Shown piece after piece: positions 2,063-38,213 of a stretch of DNA of 64,000 nt (the stretch's first letter is position 1; every line of letters starts with the position of its first letter). The translations under genes were made by a program, and so were the position numbers. The DNA is taken from assembly GCF_010389155.1 (NCBI RefSeq), contig NC_057769.1:12586735-12650734 (forward strand), in the 5' to 3' direction. The notes under the pieces are model-generated. The model saw only the letters and a list, made by a program, of their open reading frames with translations, searched no databases and had not been told where the DNA came from. The stretch comes from Erigeron canadensis (taxonomy: Eukaryota > Streptophyta > Magnoliopsida > Asterales > Asteraceae).

Positions 2063-3011
2063 TTAATTGTGTATCTTTATGAGAGTACAAAGGAAATTTT
2101 GACCGTAATCGCGCAGTTGTTGCTGAATCCATAGAACCTGTGAACAACATCTAACAGCTGCCATATATTCTGCCTCGCAAGACGAGATTGCAACCGAAGT
2201 TTGCTTCTTACATTGCCATGAAACCAATCTCCCCCTTAAGAACTGACATCCACCTGAAGTCGATTTCCTATCAAAGTTGCAGCCACCATAGTAAGTATCT
2301 ATAGACGCTATGAACTTAAAGTCTCCCCCAATCGAATACCAAAGACCCAACACTGGTTTCCCTTTGAGGTAGCGAAGATATCGCTTAACTGCTTTCATAT
2401 GGCTTTCTCTGGGACATGACTGATAACGTGCACACATACAAACCGCAAACATGATATTTGGTCTTGATGCTTTAAGATACATCAAGGAACCTATCATGGC
2501 CCTATAACGAGTAGGATCAGCTTCTGGATCATTAAAGGAAAACATCCCAAGTTGATGGTTCTTTTGTATAGGAGTATCCATCGGTGAAGTATCTTCCGTT
2601 CCAAATTGTTTGAAAATATCTTGTGCATACTTCGTCTGATGAATGAAGAATCTGTCCTTTTTCTGTTCAGCCTACACACCTAAAAAGAAGTTCATCTCTC
2701 CCATAGCACTCATTTCAAATGTGCTTTTCATAATCTGCTCAAACTGCTTGCACATCTTTTCGTCTGATGACCCGAAGTCATCCACGTAAACTTGTACAAG
2801 TAGGAAATCTTCTCCTTTCCATTTTGTAAACAACGTATTATTGATCAATCCTCTTAAAAATCCATTTTCAAGAAGATGCTTCGACAGCTTGTCGTACCAT
2901 GCCCTAGGAGCTTGATGTAATCCATACAATGCCTTATTCAGTCGATAGACTCTATCAGGATAATCTAGATCTTCAAACCCTGGCGGTTGAGTAACATGCA
3001 CCAATTCCTGG
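2063..3011 (-). pseudogene. Ty1/copia reverse transcriptase-RNase H fragment
   Basis: Read on the minus strand, 3004-2672 encodes the middle of a copia reverse transcriptase: [20 protein letters not shown], the [16 protein letters not shown] block and the catalytic YVDD, after which two residues usual in this family are missing. After frame changes near 2675 and 2580, the connection and RNase H domains follow (TRYRAMIGSLMYLKASRPN, STSGGCQF, SSCEAEYMAA). The first catalytic region of RNase H is altered (DTYYGG where DADYGG is usual). The N-terminal RT, integrase and Gag are absent. The fragment is cut at 3011 by the end of an LTR of another copia family. It is a dead remnant and is more diverged than the plus-strand pol next to it. 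Confidence 0.9.
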
Positions 3012-3340
3012 TGTAATTAACACAATTTCATCTCCTAATTCACATATTCAATGGTGGATTTTGTGTGTGCGTGTTCTTGGTGTTTTAGTGTGTGTTTCTA
3101 GAGAGAGAGAGAGGGGAAAGATTAAGATTAAGTGTGAGTAAATTTGTTACAGGAATGAAAGTTGTTGTTGTTAAAGTTATGATTTCTAAGGTGTTAAGGG
3201 ACTATTTATAGTCTAACTATACAATTAAGCTAATTAACACATCTAGTCCCTCATCCTTAGAAATCATTTATCTATGACTTAACAACAAGTAAGTCCACTA
3301 ACTTAAATTTCAATTTATCACTATTTTTGGATTTCTAACA
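3012..3340 (-). mobile_element. Copia family A LTR, minus orientation (copy Z)
   Basis: The sequence opens TGTAATTAACAC and closes TTTCTAACA, i.e. TG...CA ends, and aligns by eye along its whole length with 14933-15251. The complement of a polypurine tract (TTCTCCCCCTTAG) follows directly at 3341-3353, so this is a 3' LTR of a minus-strand element. A GAGA-rich stretch near 3103-3116 becomes the CT-rich leader in sense orientation. Confidence 0.9.
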
Positions 3341-3795
3341 TTCTCCCCCTTAGTGATATATTGTAATGAATGAAGTACGTGTTAATCTTGTCTTGTAGGA
3401 ATGAATTTGATGAGCCCGATGGTGAAGACAATTGGTTTGTTGAAACAAGTGTTTGGAGAACTTGATTCAATCTTGGTCTTGGACTTCTTGAAGTTAAATC
3501 ATGAAGAGATTCTCAATGTTCTTTTTGAACAGAGAACAAGTGTGTGTTCTTTCTTGATTCTTTGAAGATTGTTGAACCATGAATCAGAGTTGTCTTTTGA
3601 GGTGCGGAAGGTATAAACTTGGCTTTGGTTCTTCAATCTTCGATTCTTGAGTGAAATTCATCTTCTTGGAATGAAGTATCATGAACTTGTACTCTCCTCC
3701 TTGATGTATGCATTGGAGCTTCTTGAACGAGTATAATTGTATGACTTGAAGCTCTTGAATGGAATATGTTGATGAAGACTCTTTTGAAGCTTTAC
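3341..3795 (-). mobile_element. 3' untranslated end of family A, inverted copy
   Basis: Its reverse complement matches 8818-9297 block by block: the polypurine tract, the phrase around CACGTACTTCATTCCTTAC and the AAGCTTCAAAAGAGTCTTC block. The match stops abruptly at about 3795, where plus-strand integrase sequence begins. With LTR copy Z it forms one arm of an inverted repeat of about 790 bp; the other arm is 8818-9604. Confidence 0.85.
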
Positions 3796-6402
3796 TTCTA
3801 TGTCAGACTATAAGTATGAAAGTGAGCATGTGTGTCCTTCTTGTGCTGTTGGGAAGATTAAACGAGCTTCTCATAAACCAAAGAAATCTCCTAATTCATT
3901 AGCACCTCTTCATTTGCTTCACATGGATCTTTGTGGACTGATGAAAGTACAAAGCCGAAATGGGAAGAGATACATCTTGGTTATTGTTGATGATTATTCA
4001 AGATATACTTGGGTCAAGTTTCTTGCCTCCAAAGATGAAACAACTCAAATTCTGATCGATTTCATCACTTCTACTCAAGTAAATCTTCAACTTCCAGTTC
4101 GTTACATTCGTTCAGAAATGCTGTGTTCAATGAATTTTGTAAATCCAAAGACATTACACACCAATTCTCTGCGGTTCGTACCCCACAACAAAATGGTATC
4201 GTTGAAAGGAGAAATCGAACGCTTGTGGAGGCTGCAAGAACCATGCTTGCTTATTCTAAGTTGCCTTCTAACATGTGGGCTGAAGCAGTTGACACTGCTT
4301 GTCACACTCATAATCGGTCCATTGTTAATCAGCGTTTTGAGAAGACTCCTTATGAGGTTGTTAACAAACGGAAACCCAACATCAACTATTTTCATATCTT
4401 TGGGTGTGTTTGTTATACTCTGAATGATCGGGAGAATCTTGGAAAGTTCGAGAAGAAAGGTGATGAAGGTTACTTTGTTGGTTATTCCAAGACATTGATT
4501 GCCTACCGAATCTACAATCGTCGAACAAATACAATTCAAGAAACCATGAATGTTTGGTTTGATGAGATGTCAGGCATGATCTTTGAGCAAGAAAGTTTGC
4601 TACCAACAAGTTATGATCCAAGTGATTCAAGTACTTCATCAAGAACTTCTACTTTGGCATCTAAATTCAAGAAGTTTCCAGCTCCAACATGTGATGAGTT
4701 AGATATTCTTTTTGAAGAATTCTACAATTCTAAACCGATTCATGATGAAGAACCTCAAGTCATCATTGAACCAATTCCGAACCATGATCCAGTTCCTGAG
4801 AACTATCATGAATCATCATCAAGTTCTTCTGAGCAAAAAGCTACTTCTTCAAGTAGTAGTTCTTCATCCTCTTCTAATGATTCTTCTTCTCAAACCTCTC
4901 TTGATAATTCTTCTCCAGTGAATGTTCAAGAACAACCTACCCAATATACCCAGACTATCAATCCGATGAACACTCCAAATGTATATGTGCCTCTTGATTT
5001 CGATCATCCATCCTACGAGGAAGCTGTTCTACCAAACTATGATTCCATCTCTCAGCAAAACTCTGGTTTTAATGATGATGATGTTGATGTCAATCAACAA
5101 GATCCTCTTCCTCATGATTGCAAATGGTCACGTATGCGAAAAGATCATCCTACAAATAAAATTATTGGAGATCCACAAGCCGGAGTAACTACTCGTACTT
5201 CAGTGAATGAGTGTCTTGTTGCACTTTCTCTTAGCAACATTGAACCCAAAACTGTTTCTGAAGCTCTTCGAGATCCAGAATGGGTTAAAGCTATGCAAGA
5301 CGAACTCGCTCAGTTTGAAAGATTGAAAGTATGGAGATTAGTTCTAAATCCAAGAAAAGATGAACCTATTGGAACAAAGTGGATTTTCAAGAACAAGAAG
5401 GATGAGAATGGAGTGGTAGTAAGAAACAAAGCTCGATTAGTTGCAAAGGGTTATTGCCAGCAACCTGGTGTTGACTTCGATGAAACTTTTGCTCCAGTTG
5501 CAAGAATGGAAGCCATTCGGATTTTCTCAGCTTATGCCGCATTCAGAAACTTCACTGTGTTTCAAATGGATGTGAAGACAGCTTTCTTGAATGGTGATCT
5601 CAAAGAAGAAGTTTACGTTGAACAACCAGAAGGTTTTGTTGATCCCAAAAGACCAAACCATGTCTACAGGTTAGACAAGGCTCTCTACGGTCTTAAGCAA
5701 GCACCCCGAGCATGGTATGATTCCTTATCTACTTTCTTGATTAGAGGTGGCTTTACCAAAGGCACAATAGACCCTACCCTGTTCATTCCTAAACAAGGTA
5801 AACATGTTCTTCTTGTCCAAATATATGTTGATGACATTATCTTTGGGTCAACCAGTCAAACATTTTGTCGAAACTTTTCATCTCTAATGGTTAATCATTT
5901 TGAAATGAGCATGATTGGGGAAATGAACTATTTTTTGGGTCTTCAAATCAAACAACTACCAAATGGTATATTTATATCACAAGGTAAATATATTCATGAC
6001 ATGTTGAAAAAGTTTGATATGACTACTTGTTCTTCAATTTCAACTCCAATGGCTGCTCGTACAAATATTAATGCTGATAAAAATGGGAAACCATTTGACC
6101 AAAAGAGATATAGAAGTATGATTGGTTCATTGTTGTATCTTACAGCATCTCGCCCAGATATCCCTATCTATTGTGACTCTCAAAGTGCCATTGCTATTGC
6201 AGTCAACTCAGTAAACCACTCTCGATTAAAGCATATTGATGTGAGATATCATTTTCTCAAAGATCATATTGAGAAAGGTGACATCGAGCTCTACTTTGTG
6301 GGAACTGACTATCAGCTTGCAGATTTGGTCACCAAACCATTGGATGAGAAAAGGTTTAACTTTCTTATCTCTAAGCTTGGCATGTTAAATCTTGAACCTT
6401 AA
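3796..6402 (+). pseudogene. Family A Pol: integrase and reverse transcriptase, broken
   Basis: The first frame (3800-4120) holds the end of the integrase zinc region (CPSC, then KIKRASHKPKKSP) and the first catalytic Asp (HMDLCG). A small deletion at about 4115 removes the usual RSDNGTEF segment with the second catalytic Asp and shifts frame. The second frame (stop at 6402) continues with [12 protein letters not shown], the integrase C-terminal region, a Ser-rich linker, and a nearly complete [36 protein letters not shown] and catalytic YVDD at 5824-5835. At about 6162 the text jumps from TASRPDI to [12 protein letters not shown], so the central RNase H domain, roughly 150 residues, is missing. 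Gag and protease are absent. The element cannot supply its own integrase or RNase H. Confidence 0.93.
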
Positions 6403-6522: not shown

Positions 6523-6670
6523 TGGCTTACATATGCTATGTATGTAACCCGGGCTTCATAGTTTTATTTATATCTTTGAGGTTTACATATACTCTGTATG
6601 TAACCCGTGCTGAAATGATTTATTTATTTCAAGATGGCTTATACATACTTTGTGTATAACCCGTTCTTTT
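6523..6670 (+). repeat. Three tandem hairpin-forming repeats after pol
   Basis: Three units of about 60 bp each contain TTACATA or TATACATA, a short spacer, then TATGTAACCCG or its equivalent. The pairs TTACATA/TATGTAA can fold into short hairpins. They lie between the pol stop and the conserved stem-loops. Confidence 0.65.
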
Positions 6671-6673
6671 ACT

Positions 6674-6860
6674 CTCAATTGTTGATATGAGAAGCGACGG
6701 ATTGAACACCTTTGTGTACTCCCTAGTTGTCTCATCTTTAACAATTGATTGAGTTAAATGTGCTTAAATGTTTTATTTGCATCCAACTTGTTGATGTAAG
6801 ATGTGAAGGATTGAACGCCTTTGTGTACTCCTTAGTAGTCTTACTATGAACATTGTTGTT
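6674..6860 (+). other. Two candidate conserved RNA stem-loops
   Basis: The loop word GGATTGAACRCCTTTGTGTA followed by CTCC occurs at 6699-6722 and 6808-6831. Copy 1 is flanked by complementary arms: CAATTGTT near 6676-6683 pairs with AACAATTG at 6740-6747, and ATGAGA at 6687-6692 with TCTCAT at 6730-6735. Copy 2 has GTAAGA (6796-6801) against TCTTAC (6839-6844), with a weaker outer stem. A third copy lies in a different copia family at 34967-35035. Function is unknown. Confidence 0.6.
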
Positions 6861-9297
6861 GACGCAAAACTTTGTGTTTCTTAAAATCCTGTTCACTTGT
6901 AGACTCTCAAATTTTTGTTTTCCATGTATATATCACAATAAAGATTTTACTCTTTTTGACTTCAAAAAAACCAATTTTTGCTCTATCTTTGTATGAAAAA
7001 CTTTTAAGATCTACCTTTGCATAGATTAAGGGGGAGTTTGTGATTTCAAAAATTTTAAAACTTCAAAATGTGTTTTCAAATCATTTTCTTACACACATTT
7101 GATGATTTTCAAATGATTTTTCATCAATTGAAGTTCGGTGTTTAGTTTGCACATGAGCGATTCATTCACTCCATGAACTTCATCATCGCCGATGAATTCT
7201 AACCCCGGAGTATTCACTTCTATTTTGAGTGATGATCGTTTCGTGCAAATAGGATGGAGGGAGTAAAGTCGAAAAGTGAGAGGTTATGGTGATATGTTGT
7301 GAGAAAAGGGTTAAAAGTAATGACACCCTTCACTAAATTTCTCAAATCGCCGGGTATAACACATTTCTATCGGATGTCATTTGTTGATATCCTGATAAAG
7401 ACTTCATGGACCCAGTGAAGTGATGCACATCTTTACCGAACCACTCAAGTGTTTCTTAACAAATACTTGTTTTATTTCTCACGAAGATTTTCGCATTTCT
7501 ATTGACCCTTCATTTGGAAGATGTTGATATTGAATAAGGGCGACACTCTGCTCCGGTCCCCGACTTCATTTGCTCACGTTGTGTCTAGAGCTATCTTGTT
7601 TGATCATTAATTTGATCCTTATTCATTTTCTTAAGACACATTTGAGTCATATCTTTATGATATTATTGCATATCTATGTGATATAGCCGGAACATTTGTA
7701 GTGATATCTTAATTGATATTCCACAATGATCAAATGAAAATCCTACCAATGCTAACATCTTTTCCAACGTTGATCGTAGGTCTCATAATTACACTTGTGT
7801 AATTATCGAGTGAACGAGAAGTCTGTCAGTAACCTCGGATGTTACCTAAAAGTCTTTAAGGATAATAGATTGTGGTTATCGAACGCCTTAGGTGACATTG
7901 ACCATGATTTCTATTCTTTGAAGCAATCTCGTAGTTGAAAAGCTACAAGACCAAACTATATTAGAATATTGCTTTGTGAATAATTCAATGATACATAGGA
8001 AATCCAAAAAATGTCATATATTTTTATCAGTCATTTCATTAATCTTTTTGATTTTTTGAACATGTTGAACGGATCATCCTTATCCGGTTTTTCCATTTTT
8101 CATTTCACAAACACATAAACCACCAACACCATACTATAACATTTGTACCAACAACTTCAACCTTACATTTTAGTTACCCTTAGGATTCTTTGGGTTGGGA
8201 CTATTGAATTGGATTGATGTGTTGTTGTTTGATATTTCTCCATGCAAATCTAGTTTTAACTTGTGATATTTCTTTTCGTATTTTATCAATCAATGTTTGC
8301 ATAATGACATTGGTTCCCAACTTTGTCATTATGAGGGGGAGAAAAAGATTATGATTGATTGAGAAAGAAAACCTTTGAGCTTGATTTGTGCAAACATGGA
8401 ATTAGTAAGAAGGTTGTAGTGAGTGTATGGAGGTTACGGATAAAAGATAAGAGAGAATATTTAGTGTATGGGATTGATGGGAAAACTTGCAATTGATGGA
8501 ATTTCAGTCAATTGAGCTCAGATTTTCAGATTTGAGTTGTTCATTTTTAGTCAACTAAGTTCTTGACTTGAAAAAGAAAATCAAGATGATTACAAAGATA
8601 AGAATGAGACTAATGATGAGAGGATATTATCTCAAGATGGAACAAATGTTCAAAGATGCTCCAAAATGTTTATACTCATGAATTGAGGGGGAGCATGATC
8701 ACTTAATAAGAGATTTATCCAAATTTCATTCAAATATTTACTTTCCAAAGTGTTCAAGTTAAATGTAACAAAGATCAAAGCTACGAAAAGTTGAAAATTG
8801 ATTGGAAGATTCAAGACCAAGAAGTAAAGCTTCAAAAGAGTCTTCATCAACAGATTTCATTCAAGATCTTCAAGTTGTTCATTTACACTTGTTCAAGAAT
8901 GTTCCTATGCATACATCAAGGGGGAGAGTACAAGTTTTTGATACTTTATTCCAAGGAAACAAATTTTCATTCAAGAATCAAAGATTGAAGAACCAAAGCC
9001 AAGTTTATACCTTCCGCAATTCAAAAGACAACTCTGATTCATGGTTCAACAATTTTCAAAGATTCTAGACTCATTCATTTTATTCTCTGTTCAAAAAGAA
9101 CTTTGAGAATTTCATCATGTTTTAACTTCGAGAAGTCCAAGAGCAAGATTGATTCAAGTTCTCCAGAGACGATGAGAAAGCTTTGAAGACTTGTTTCATC
9201 ACACCAATTGTCTTCACCATCGGGCTCATCAACTTAATTTCTACAAGACAAAATAACACGTACTTCATTCCTTACAATATATCACTAAGGGGGAGAA

Positions 9298-9604
9298 TGT
9301 TAGAAATCCAAAAATAGTGATAAATTGTAATTTAAGTTAGTAGACTTAGTTGTTGTTAAGACATGGTGAAATGATTTCTAAGGTTGAGGGACTAGGAGTG
9401 TTAATTAGCTTAATTGTAGATTTAGACTATAAATACCCTCAACTCCTTAGAAATCATAAGCCTTTAATCCATTTTTGACACACACTTAATACAGTTCGTT
9501 CCAATCTCTCTCTCTCTCAAGAAATCACACACACTAAACACACCAAGAACACACACACTTGATCTGCCATTGTTGAGATCAAATCCAGAGCAGAAATCGT
9601 GTTA
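9298..9604 (+). mobile_element. Family A 3' LTR, plus orientation (copy Y)
   Basis: It starts TGTTAGAAATCC directly after the polypurine tract. It is the reverse-complement relative of 14933-15251 and 3012-3340, but more diverged from them than they are from each other. A CT-repeat leader lies near 9507-9521. The last six bases expected (ATTACA) are missing: the sequence changes at 9604 into minus-strand gag-extension DNA, so this end was cut by rearrangement. Confidence 0.88.
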
Positions 9605-29737: not shown

Positions 29738-30713
29738 TGTTAGGTCCAGTTTAAGCTATAAACTGGAGCTCTCCAGCGGCATCTGGAGAGCATGAAGAAT
29801 TTTCCAAAATATTAGAAGTCTAGTTAGATTGTACAGTTTAAGCAACTGATGACTTCCTCCAGTTGAGATCTGAAGACTTAAATCTGAAGACCTTCTAGTT
29901 GAAGTCGAAGACAACAAGTGGAAGAAAGGAAATGTCAATGGCAGCGAAGCCCAGTTGACATTTCACCAGATCAATCAACTGGAGATCCTTCAGTGTAAAT
30001 GCCTTTACAAAGCTTTACACTGATCACGAGGAGGACCTTTTACACTACATCCTTTTAACCAGACAATAATCTTGTCTGTGGATAAAAGTGCAAAGATATA
30101 GAGTGGTTGAATAAAGTAACCTTTTGTCTTACTTTATTTATCACACACAAAGGATTATTTAACAATACTTTTGTGTGCTGTCAACCATACTTACACGTCG
30201 AAGTTGAGATCCCAATGCTCATACTTCGACTATAAATAGAGGTCCTTGCACAAGCATTTTCACAACTTTGCAAATACATATATTCTGCAATATTGGTGAA
30301 CTTGTGCAATATTCTCTCAATCGCAAAAAAGAACATTTCACAACTCTAAGTGTTTCGATTGTTTAGGAGAATTTCCAAGTTTAGATCAATTGTATTTCAT
30401 AGGTTGTTAGGATATTTACATTCTTGTATTATCTTGGTTCCGCAACAACCTTGTATTTTATTTAAACAATTAATAAATAAAATACACTTGAAAAAATACA
30501 TATTGTCTTACCAATTTATATACTTGTCATTTATATTATTGCATTGTATTTACTTATCCATATTGTCACTTTAATAAGTTTACATCCAGTTAACCTGGTA
30601 CACAATCAATCTAAACTGGCCAAGTCCAGATTAATTGATTGTGTTGCAAAGTTCACTCACCATTGACATAGAGGTGTCTTCAGCACCCATCTAGCAATAG
30701 TTTGGGACTTACA
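29738..30713 (+). mobile_element. Family B 5' LTR (mosaic middle LTR)
   Basis: The 976-bp sequence starts TGTTAGGTCCAG and ends GGGACTTACA. A TATA-like CTATAAATAGAGG at about 30229 is the likely promoter. Against 37239-38213 I count 10 substitutions and one 1-bp indel, 8 of these 11 in the last 226 bp. It carries many CAGTT/AACTG words. Confidence 0.95.
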
Positions 30714-30715
30714 AG

Positions 30716-30727
30716 TGGTATCAGAGC
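30716..30727 (+). other. Primer-binding site, initiator Met tRNA (family B)
   Basis: TGGTATCAGAGC lies two bases after the LTR, an exact match to the plant tRNA-iMet complement. Confidence 0.97.
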
Positions 30728-34560: not shown

Positions 34561-34932
34561 TGGACCAGTAAGAAGCAGACTTCGGTCTCAATGTCCACTG
34601 CTGAGGCAGAATAGATTTCTGCAGCCAATTGCTGTGCCCAGATTCTCTGGATCAAAAACCAGTTACTTGATTATGGTATGAAATACACAAGAACCCCAAT
34701 TTTTTGTGACAATACCAGTGCAATTGCTATATCTCACAACCCAGTGATGCACTCAAAGACAAAGCATATTGACATCAGGTATCACTTCATTCGTGATCAT
34801 GTTATGAAAGGAGACATTGAAATACATTTCATCCCCACTGATAAACAGTTAGCTGATGTCTTTACAAAACCTCTTGATGAGAAAACTTTTAAACATCTCA
34901 TCAGTGAACTGGGTATGTTAAATCCTCATTAA
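34561..34932 (+). pseudogene. Family B RNase H C-terminal remnant
   Basis: From 34561 another frame reads the RNase H block KKQTSVSMSTAEAE, a stop, then ISAANCCAQILWIKNQLLDY, joined to the ORF at 34678-34932 (TPIFCDNTSAIAISHNP, KHIDIRYHFIRDHV, ADVFTKPLDEKTF). The RT and the N-terminal RNase H that should precede it are deleted. The stop at 34932 is the normal end of Pol. Confidence 0.9.
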
Positions 34933-34960
34933 ACTGGAGAGGCCCTCCAGTTGAGGATGG

Positions 34961-35036
34961 TCCAGGTGATCCTTGATTGGTTGGAGATTGAACGCCTTGA
35001 TGTACTCAAAGACTAGTCATTGATCAAATGGATCAT
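34961..35036 (+). other. Third copy of the conserved stem-loop
   Basis: AGATTGAACGCCTTGATGTA followed by CTC at 34985-35007 is the loop word. TGATCC (34967-34972) and TTGAT (34973-34977) pair with GGATCA (35030-35035) and ATCAA (35023-35027). It lies 30-100 bp after pol, like the copies at 6674-6860, but in a different copia family and with different stem sequence. Confidence 0.6.
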
Positions 35037-35497
35037 ATTTTTAGGGGGAAAAGACTCAAAATATTTTTCCAAATTAAAATTCGTTTTATTTTGAAAAATG
35101 CAACTGAGGGTCATCAGTTGAAATTGGCATATGGAAAATCTCTCCAGTATGCTAGTTTGGTCTTGTCTTAAACTGGTGGTCAACCAGATTTATGTTTTAC
35201 TTGGTGGATACTTGTGACACGTGATGTTACTCGAGTGTTTTTCTCGCACTCACAAACGTCACCTGACATGTCTTACGTGTCAAGACTTTTTGCTGAAAAT
35301 TACTGCACTTTTTTTATGGGAATTGTTGAAGTTAATGGGTGAGTGGGAATACCAGCCGTCATAGCATTAAATGTTTGATGGAAGGTATTAAATGTTTTTG
35401 AATTCTCAAAATTACTGAAAATCAATTTTTACAAACTATTTCAAAATTTGGGGATTAAAATATCTTTTCGTATATATTTTGGTAATATTTTATTACC

Positions 35498-37227: not shown

Positions 37228-38213
37228 TAGGGGGAATTTGTTAGGTCCAGTTTAAGCTATAAACTGGAGCTCTCCAGCGGCATCTGGAGAGCATGAAGAA
37301 TTGTCCAAAATATTAGAAGTCTAGTTAGATTGTACAGTTTAAGCAACTGATGACTTCCTCCAGTTGAGATCTGAAGACTTAAATCTGAAGACCTTCCAGT
37401 TGAAGTCGAAGACAACAAGTGGAAGAAAGGAAATGTCAATGGCAGCGAAGCCCAGTTGACATTTCACCAGATCAATCAACTGGAGATCCTTCAGTGTAAA
37501 TGCCTTTACAAAGCTTTACACTGATCACGAGGAGGACCTTTTACACTACATCCTTTTAACCAGACAATAATCTTGTCTGTGGATAAAAGTGCAAAGATAT
37601 AGAGTGGTTGAATAAAGTAACCTTTTGTCTTACTTTATTTATCACACACAAAGGATTATTTAACAATACTTTTGTGTGCTGTCAACCATACTTACACGTC
37701 GAAGTTGAGATCCCAATGCTCATACTTCGACTATAAATAGAGGTCCTTGCACAAGCTTTTTCACAACTTTGCAAATACATATATTCTGCAATATTGGTGA
37801 ACTTGTGCAATATTCTCTCAATCGCAAAAAAGAACATTTCACAACTCTAAGTGTTTCGATTGTTTAGGAGAATTTCCAAGTTTAGATCAATTGTATTTCA
37901 TAGGTTGTTAGGATATTTACATTCTTGTATTATCTTGGTTCCGCAACAACCTTGTATTTTATTTAAACAATTAATAAATAAAATACACTTGAAAAATACA
38001 TATTGTCTCACCAATTTATATACTTGTCATTTATATTATTGCATTGTATTTACTTATTCATACTGTCACCTTAATAAGTTTACCTCCAGTTAACCTGGTA
38101 CACAATCAATCTAAACTGGTCAAGTCCAGATTAATTGATTGTGTTGCAAAGTTCACTCACCACTGACATAGAGGTGTCTTCAGCACCCATCTAGCAATAG
38201 TTTGGGACTTACA
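37228..38213 (+). mobile_element. Polypurine tract and family B 3' LTR
   Basis: TTAGGGGGAATT precedes TGTTAGGTCCAG at 37239; the LTR ends GGGACTTACA at 38213 (975 bp). It is nearly identical to 29738-30713. The sequence beyond (AGCTCCATACC) is unrelated to the element, so this is the true right boundary. Confidence 0.95.

What the first reader, a model, noticed from the sequence alone, without database searches (positions are those of the whole stretch)
6674..6860. Conserved stem-loop after pol in two copia families, with differing stems
The loop word GATTGAACRCCTTKRTGTACTC occurs twice here and once at 34985-35007 in another family, each time shortly after the pol stop. Outside the loop the three copies differ, yet complementary arms remain: CAATTGTT/AACAATTG with ATGAGA/TCTCAT, GTAAGA/TCTTAC, and TGATCC/GGATCA with TTGAT/ATCAA. 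A constant loop with changing but paired stems points to a functional RNA structure, such as an export, packaging or translation element. I do not recall it being described.
Basis: partly seen in the sequence, partly recalled or inferred. Interest (0 to 1): 0.86.

Follow-up and report, generated by a model that had tools for sequence, protein, structure and literature searches.

The report
Constant-tip RNA hairpin in plant retrotransposons
A predicted RNA hairpin, whose tip sequence recurs about 2,600 times in this plant genome and mostly sits just after retrotransposon polymerase genes where checked, keeps its tip nearly constant while its stem changes in matched pairs, so it is likely a docking site that would steer the element's own RNA, perhaps out of the nucleus.

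Summary
The 22-nt word occurs exactly three times in the window and 2,643 times in the 426-Mb plant genome at up to 2 mismatches; reversed control 0. Ten hairpin classes, in seven groups with unrelated arms, share the tip. Where position 1 is not G and 22 is not C, 100 of 100 listed copies (of 995) stay Watson-Crick: A-T 81, T-A 15, C-G 4. G with a non-C partner occurs 27 times, 22 of them T, a G-U pair. A formal pair count beats 500 of 500 shuffles on four of five measures. Own arms pair best in 9 of 10 classes; 0 of 20,000 permutations match. The sense strand folds better in 17 of 18. Against: RNAalifold predicted no consensus pair. Of 48 distinct hairpins, 38 have a Copia RNase H upstream on the same strand, 0 downstream; 45 are followed by AGGGGGA. 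Function is untested; my best reading is a protein-docking element for full-length RNA, like a constitutive transport element, with packaging the main rival. Ten literature searches and Rfam gave no description. Other plants could not be searched.

The parts
6671..6754 (+). Hairpin 1 (class c1), tip word 6700-6721
   Evidence: (z -5.0)
6784..6858 (+). Hairpin 2 (class c2), tip word 6809-6830
   Evidence: (z -4.4)
34957..35036 (+). Hairpin 3 (class c3), tip word 34986-35007
   Evidence: (z -3.0)
4039..6402 (+). Open pol frame of element 1 (integrase end, RT, RNase H); upstream neighbour of hairpins 1 and 2. Shortened between RT and RNase H (from the reading, not tested against an intact copy)
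34687..34932 (+). RNase H end and pol stop (34930-34932) of element 2
7029..7035 (+). First internal AGGGGGA (polypurine-tract word) after hairpins 1 and 2
35043..35049 (+). Internal AGGGGGA 57 nt after the start of tip word 3
29738..30713 (+). 5' LTR of element 2 (ends read from the sequence); primer-binding word TGGTATCAGAGC at 30716
37239..38213 (+). 3' LTR of element 2 (ends read from the sequence), preceded by AGGGGGA at 37229

Best explanation
This is a family of sense-strand hairpin-forming sequences between pol and the polypurine tracts of Copia (Sirevirus-type) retrotransposons, with a nearly constant 22-nt tip on stems that change sequence but stay complementary, and it likely works as an RNA docking site that would carry the element's full-length RNA out of the nucleus. 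Shown here: position, copy number, constancy of the tip, covariation and strand polarity. Inferred: the structure forms in the transcript, and a protein, probably a host one, reads the tip. The tip fold I infer is pairs 1:22 and 2:21, a U-Y bulge, 5:20, an A-A mismatch, 7:18, 8:17, 9:16 and a small loop. Also inferred: the stem only presents the tip, which is why it drifts freely, and several copies per element raise the binding. By analogy with the constitutive transport element of Mason-Pfizer monkey virus and the direct repeats of Rous sarcoma virus, the bound protein would link unspliced RNA to the mRNA export route.
For: 2,643 words at up to 2 mismatches, reversed control 0. Closing pair 1:22: 100 of 100 listed of 995 double changes are Watson-Crick; G with non-C only 27, of which 22 G-T. 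Pair count on 18 copies: covariation score 0.285 against 0.137 +- 0.017, 0 of 500 shuffles, slid structures 0.042-0.103. Own arms best in 9 of 10 classes, 0 of 20,000 permutations. Sense strand folds better in 17 of 18. Positions 2 and 21 never change together (0 matches), as for a tip read as sequence. Place: 38 of 48 hairpins after a Copia RNase H end, 0 of 48 before one, 45 of 48 followed by AGGGGGA. Analogy: in MPMV the PPT lies directly downstream of the transport element (PMC11379458, passages); RSV direct repeats act in export (PMC3856414, passages). The hairpin occurs in a family with a third ORF and in one whose linker shows no relative of that ORF.
Against: No call tests function. 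RNAalifold on the 18 copies predicted no pair. Single-sequence minimum-energy folds do not always form the proposed tip: L124, several c2 copies and the GA-loop classes fold the tip another way. Pair 10:15 is broken in the GA-loop classes (5 of 18 rows) and pairs 0:23 and -1:24 in several rows. Nothing found shows that these transcripts are spliced or need an export aid. 3 of 48 copies lack an AGGGGGA within 1.4 kb and 10 of 48 lack a detected RNase H. Presence in other plants unknown.
Confidence: 0.42

Rival explanations
1. Packaging or dimerisation signal: the constant tip is bound by the element's own Gag and marks full-length RNA for virus-like particles.
For: Constant tip on variable stems in several copies; point changes in the 3' untranslated region of an avian retrovirus cause a packaging defect (title in a reference list of PMC3856414). 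Element 2 has a long gag frame.
Against: One tip would have to be read by the Gags of diverged families, which are not compared here; the 5' leader is the usual packaging region of retroelements (recall).
Confidence: 0.25
2. Reverse-transcription aid: the hairpin marks or protects the internal polypurine tract that follows it.
For: 45 of 48 hairpins are followed by AGGGGGA within 1.4 kb; in class c3 it starts 57 nt after the word in 11 of 13 copies, and L124, with unrelated arms, shows AGGGGG at 56 nt.
Against: In the other classes the distance runs from 118 to 514 nt, and Sirevirus linkers hold several such words anyway (PMC2829016 section 6). The RNA stem would not exist once the RNA is paired with minus-strand DNA (inference).
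Confidence: 0.12
3. Translation element for the third ORF (re-initiation, internal entry or stop read-through).
For: In element 2 the hairpin lies between pol and a third ORF. Sireviruses are discussed for unusual recoding (PMC2829016, passage).
Against: Element 1's linker shows no relative of that ORF; its hairpins start about 270 nt after the stop.
Confidence: 0.08
4. Small-RNA source or DNA palindrome: the long arms are a silencing substrate or a DNA-level dyad.
For: 30 to 40 pairs in the minimum-energy folds of 98-nt pieces. Palindromes of maize Sirevirus LTRs correlate with small RNAs (PMC10760457, passages).
Against: A miRNA-type role would conserve an arm; here the arms drift and the tip is constant. 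G-U pairs make the sense strand the better folder in 17 of 18, which a DNA dyad does not predict.
Confidence: 0.08

Closest known systems
Constitutive transport element of Mason-Pfizer monkey virus and simian retroviruses
   Same: Structured RNA near the 3' end, directly upstream of the PPT (PMC11379458, passages); [quoted passage not shown]
   Different: Its binding sites are internal loops ('NXF1-binding loops'); here the constant part is the hairpin tip, in several separate hairpins. No sequence relation shown; export untested.
Direct repeats of Rous sarcoma virus
   Same: Repeated cis elements in the 3' part, at least one needed, with effects on export, stability and packaging (PMC3856414, passages).
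   Different: 115-nt direct repeats kept as sequence; here only the tip is kept and arms differ between classes.
Sirevirus inverted repeat at the PPT/3' LTR junction (PMC2829016)
   Same: Hairpin-forming repeat in the linker of the same kind of element.
   Different: That repeat flanks the terminal PPT and reaches into the LTR; this hairpin ends before the first internal AGGGGGA and contains none.
Sirevirus LTR palindromes (RM boxes, CGG-CCG core; PMC2829016, PMC10760457)
   Same: Short palindromic units, several copies, non-coding Sirevirus DNA.
   Different: They lie in the LTR and before env with a conserved core; here arms vary and the tip is constant (sequences).

Membership tests
Sirevirus-type Copia retrotransposon (host element) | Copia pol order: integrase before reverse transcriptase | tested here: met
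   Element 1: SH3/integrase pieces before RVT_2. Element 2 checked only for gag and integrase-side domains and an RNase H end.
Sirevirus-type Copia retrotransposon (host element) | PPT AGGGGGAG (or final A) starting 10 nt before the 3' LTR, more than one copy in the linker | tested here: met
   Element 2: words at 35043 and 37229, the latter 10 nt before the LTR; element 1: 7029, 8334, 8686, 8919, 9288, its LTR start inferred from the junction.
Sirevirus-type Copia retrotransposon (host element) | LTR palindromes, CpG island, polyC-rich integrase signal, place in an RT tree | not tested
   No call made.
Constitutive transport element (works-like claim) | Lies in the 3' non-coding part, upstream of a PPT | tested here: met
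   38 of 48 after RNase H, 45 of 48 before AGGGGGA.
Constitutive transport element (works-like claim) | Binds TAP/NXF1 or another export factor | not testable with these tools
   Needs pull-down.
Constitutive transport element (works-like claim) | Raises cytoplasmic unspliced RNA without a viral protein | not testable with these tools
   Needs a reporter.
Any described RNA family (Rfam 15) | Match to a covariance model | tested here: not met
   Window at gathering scores: 0; six hairpin loci, 934 bases, E up to 1: 0.
Sirevirus PPT/3' LTR inverted repeat | Arms flank the terminal PPT and enter the LTR | tested here: not met
   Hairpins end before the first internal AGGGGGA, far from the LTR.

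The most novel reading that the evidence does not exclude
Plant Copia retrotransposons own a dedicated RNA transport signal: a modular hairpin with an invariant protein-read tip on a freely evolving stem, in up to three copies per element. It would be the first constitutive-transport-type element known from plants and a handle on the plant protein that reads it.
Probability: 0.33. Interest if true: 0.87.

Novelty: new variant of a known kind. Interest (0 to 1): 0.74.

Why it matters
Sireviruses are a large part of some plant genomes (21% of maize B73; PMC10760457, passage), yet how their RNA is exported, selected and packaged is, as far as I know, open. A tip shared by all ten classes sampled, with all four Watson-Crick pairs seen at its closing position, is a concrete bait for pull-down and a compact reporter test. 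It is also a candidate new RNA family for Rfam and a marker for the otherwise hard-to-align linkers of these elements.

Tried and rejected
Chance: rejected (reversed controls 0). Coding conservation: disfavoured, since the word lies after the pol stop and the arms differ wholly between classes; not tested further. miRNA-like or DNA palindrome: disfavoured. Third-ORF expression as the common role: disfavoured. Long-range pairing of the word inside the element: only runs of 9-14 nt allowing G-U, with no partner place that I could see as common to both elements; dropped.

Led nowhere. Viral contigs: exact word 0; RNase H 2 and 69 pattern matches, none confirmed; RT 5 pattern matches, none confirmed; relaxed word 5 matches, flanks seen, taken as chance and not tested further. 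Genome contigs: relaxed word 43 matches, none of the 43 loci encodes Copia RNase H or RT by tblastn. Protein search: 761 relatives, 120 listed, the named plant ones Tanacetum and Centaurea; none of the 120 carries one of the peptides I looked for from the word. So other plants remain untested. RNAalifold predicted 0 pairs on A2, against my reading; I blame unaligned outer arms, which is inference. The covariance model found no new class among 64 matches (E up to 5) in 45 sources, 336,528 bases; its weakest seven matches (E 1.9-4.8) were not looked at. Never answered: the pattern with position 1 not G and 22 = C, so the 4x4 table of the closing pair is incomplete; the 5:20 test; a protein query of the own genome.

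Rows dropped: of 68 distinct 98-nt copies, 24 remain below 90% identity; 18 of the 24 went into A2. Left out: L049:1574, L050:1463, L050:1575, L063, L064, L089. Some of these are damaged (L064 has a different 5' arm, L050:1575 a broken 3' side), so the 86.1% paired cells flatter somewhat. L125-L130 came later and are not in A2. The arm test used one copy for each of 10 classes, chosen by eye; by 62% single linkage there are 8 groups, one of them a single damaged copy, so some of the ten classes are related. All fetched copies come from the first 18 Mb of contig C1, plus the window on C9.

Full report
OBSERVATION. The word GATTGAACRCCTTKRTGTACTC is at 6700-6721, 6809-6830 and 34986-35007 on the plus strand, with none in 100 shuffles. 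Each copy is the tip of a predicted hairpin. The first two follow the open pol frame 4039-6402 of a Copia element. The third follows the pol stop 34930-34932 of a second Copia element with LTRs at about 29738-30713 and 37239-38213. The RNase H ends of the two are 65-67% identical, so these are different families. The flanks of the third copy agree with those of the other two at 4 to 8 of 23-28 ungapped positions.

HOST ELEMENT. Both elements show Sirevirus hallmarks described by Bousios et al. (PMC2829016; I saw the abstract, the first of seven parts, sections 6 and 8, and passages): several AGGGGGA words in the linker, the terminal one beginning 10 nt before the LTR (for element 1 the LTR start is inferred from the junction alone). 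That paper describes the PPT array, an inverted repeat round the terminal PPT and LTR palindromes. A term search of its main text finds no 'hairpin' or 'stem-loop' and no 'TTGAAC', and I saw no mention of this element.

GENOME-WIDE COUNT. In the window's own genome (426 Mb, 356 contigs) the word occurs 1340 + 1303 times at up to two mismatches, reversed control 0. A pattern that forbids G at position 1 and C at position 22, with the other letters chosen independently, finds 514 + 481 = 995 copies, control 0; of these 100 are listed and all 100 are Watson-Crick at 1:22: A-T 81, T-A 15, C-G 4 (my count of the listing). The two totals overlap, since two changes are allowed. G at 1 with a non-C at 22 occurs 27 times: 22 T (a G-U wobble, but also what C-to-T decay gives), 3 A, 2 G. 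The reciprocal pattern did not complete. Changing positions 2 and 21 together finds nothing, so the closing pair is free to covary while A2-U21 is not seen to.

NEW CLASSES. A 200-kb stretch taken without regard to the word gave five words at up to four mismatches, in two new classes besides c1. There the two full-length RNase H matches of 65-68% identity (L101, L102) are both followed by hairpins. The weaker matches (35-49% in L102, L109, L111, and a 20-residue piece of 80% in L111) have none beside them; the hairpin in L112 has no RNase H match. Twelve small pieces fetched at listed places bring the set to ten classes by eye, with 1:22 as G-C, A-T, C-G or T-A and inner letters TG or GA, one copy TA. 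By 62% single linkage on the flanks, 68 distinct copies made before fall into eight groups, one of them a damaged single copy; the best identity between groups is 0.08 to 0.56. Minimum-energy folds of the 98-nt pieces have 30 to 40 pairs.

COVARIATION. On a MAFFT alignment of 18 copies (A2; 18 of 24 copies below 90% identity) I named 17 pairs. 86.1% of cells pair (shuffles 77.5 +- 1.1), eight pairs change on both sides (4.1 +- 1.2), 29 cells change on both sides (7.9 +- 2.8), and the covariation score is 0.285 (0.137 +- 0.017), each reached by 0 of 500 shuffles. The fifth measure, further pair types, does not stand out (187 of 500). Slid structures score 0.042-0.103. The structure was drawn from these sequences, so the slid control favours it. 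RNAalifold on the same alignment predicted no pair at all. The alignment-free test is therefore the stronger one. Among ten classes each left arm was paired with every right arm: its own partner is the best in nine and second in c2; own pairs average -25.6 kcal/mol, swapped ones -11.7 (2 of 90 swapped reach the own mean); no permutation of 20,000 reaches the own total. With the word fixed and flanks shuffled, 0 to 5 of 500 fold as well for the 12 copies tested. The fold of the tip itself is less sure: L124, several c2 copies and the GA-loop classes fold it another way in single-sequence prediction.

POLARITY. The sense strand folds better than the antisense in 17 of 18 copies (one cG1 copy is the exception), mean difference 7.2 kcal/mol; the sense folds contain 1 to 10 G-U pairs each. 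This points to RNA of the transcript strand rather than a DNA palindrome.

PLACE. Of 48 distinct hairpins in the first 30 genome loci, the 200-kb block and the window, 38 lie within 1.2 kb downstream of a Copia RNase H match on the same strand, 0 lie that close upstream of one, and 45 are followed by AGGGGGA within 1.4 kb. The 10 without RNase H were not traced. In class c3 the word lies at a median of 54 nt after the stop, and AGGGGGA starts 57 nt after the word in 11 of 13 copies (one at 1115, one none). L124, with unrelated arms, shows AGGGGG at 56 nt. In the other classes the distance is 118 to 514 nt, and hairpins come in arrays of up to three. Element 2 has a broken third ORF further on; the element-1 linker shows no relative of it by tblastn, and its two main open pieces match no Pfam family.

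MECHANISM. Shown: a selected, sense-strand, hairpin-forming element with a nearly constant tip in Copia linkers. Inferred: the tip is read by a protein and the stem is only its holder. The pattern (tip held as sequence except for its closing pair and a few inner letters, stem free, up to three copies, place between pol and a PPT word) is most like retroviral post-transcriptional elements. The MPMV transport element sits directly upstream of the PPT, and an HML-8-derived region of a primate retrovirus has the same role (PMC11379458, abstract lines and passages). The RSV direct repeats act in export and packaging (PMC3856414, passages). I commit to an RNA transport/docking element at 0.42, with packaging by Gag at 0.25. 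No call bears on function directly.

NOVELTY. Ten literature searches (listings, with passages of four other papers) and Rfam gave no description. Most subscription papers are not in the library, so this is not proof of absence. Filed as a new variant of a known kind: cis-acting RNA hairpins of retroelements are known; a plant one with a constant tip on freely exchanged stems is, as far as I could find, not.

Noticed in passing
window 6524-6662 +: Three more small hairpins, GGYTTACATA...TATGTAACCC type, at 56-nt spacing between the element-1 pol stop and hairpin 1.
   Followed up: no
window 34932-34952 +: A perfect 8-bp inverted repeat AACTGGAG/CTCCAGTT begins on the last base of element 2's pol stop codon.
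   Followed up: no
L120, L121 and window 34986-35007: The inner tip letters fall into two main kinds, CCTTTGTG and CCTTGATG, across classes with unrelated arms; the second breaks pair 10:15 and may use another loop.
   Followed up: no
L065:1760-1857, L074:1759-1856 and six other loci: Class A (AATT...ACTT) is near enough to a palindrome that the covariance model also matches its antisense strand weakly, E 0.0005 to 0.06.
   Followed up: no
window 2312-3350 - and 9288-9310 +: The same PPT/LTR junction lies in inverse orientation at 3350 and 9288, with another Copia RT match (41% identity) on the minus strand at 2312-3010: looks like a rearranged or nested insertion.
   Followed up: no
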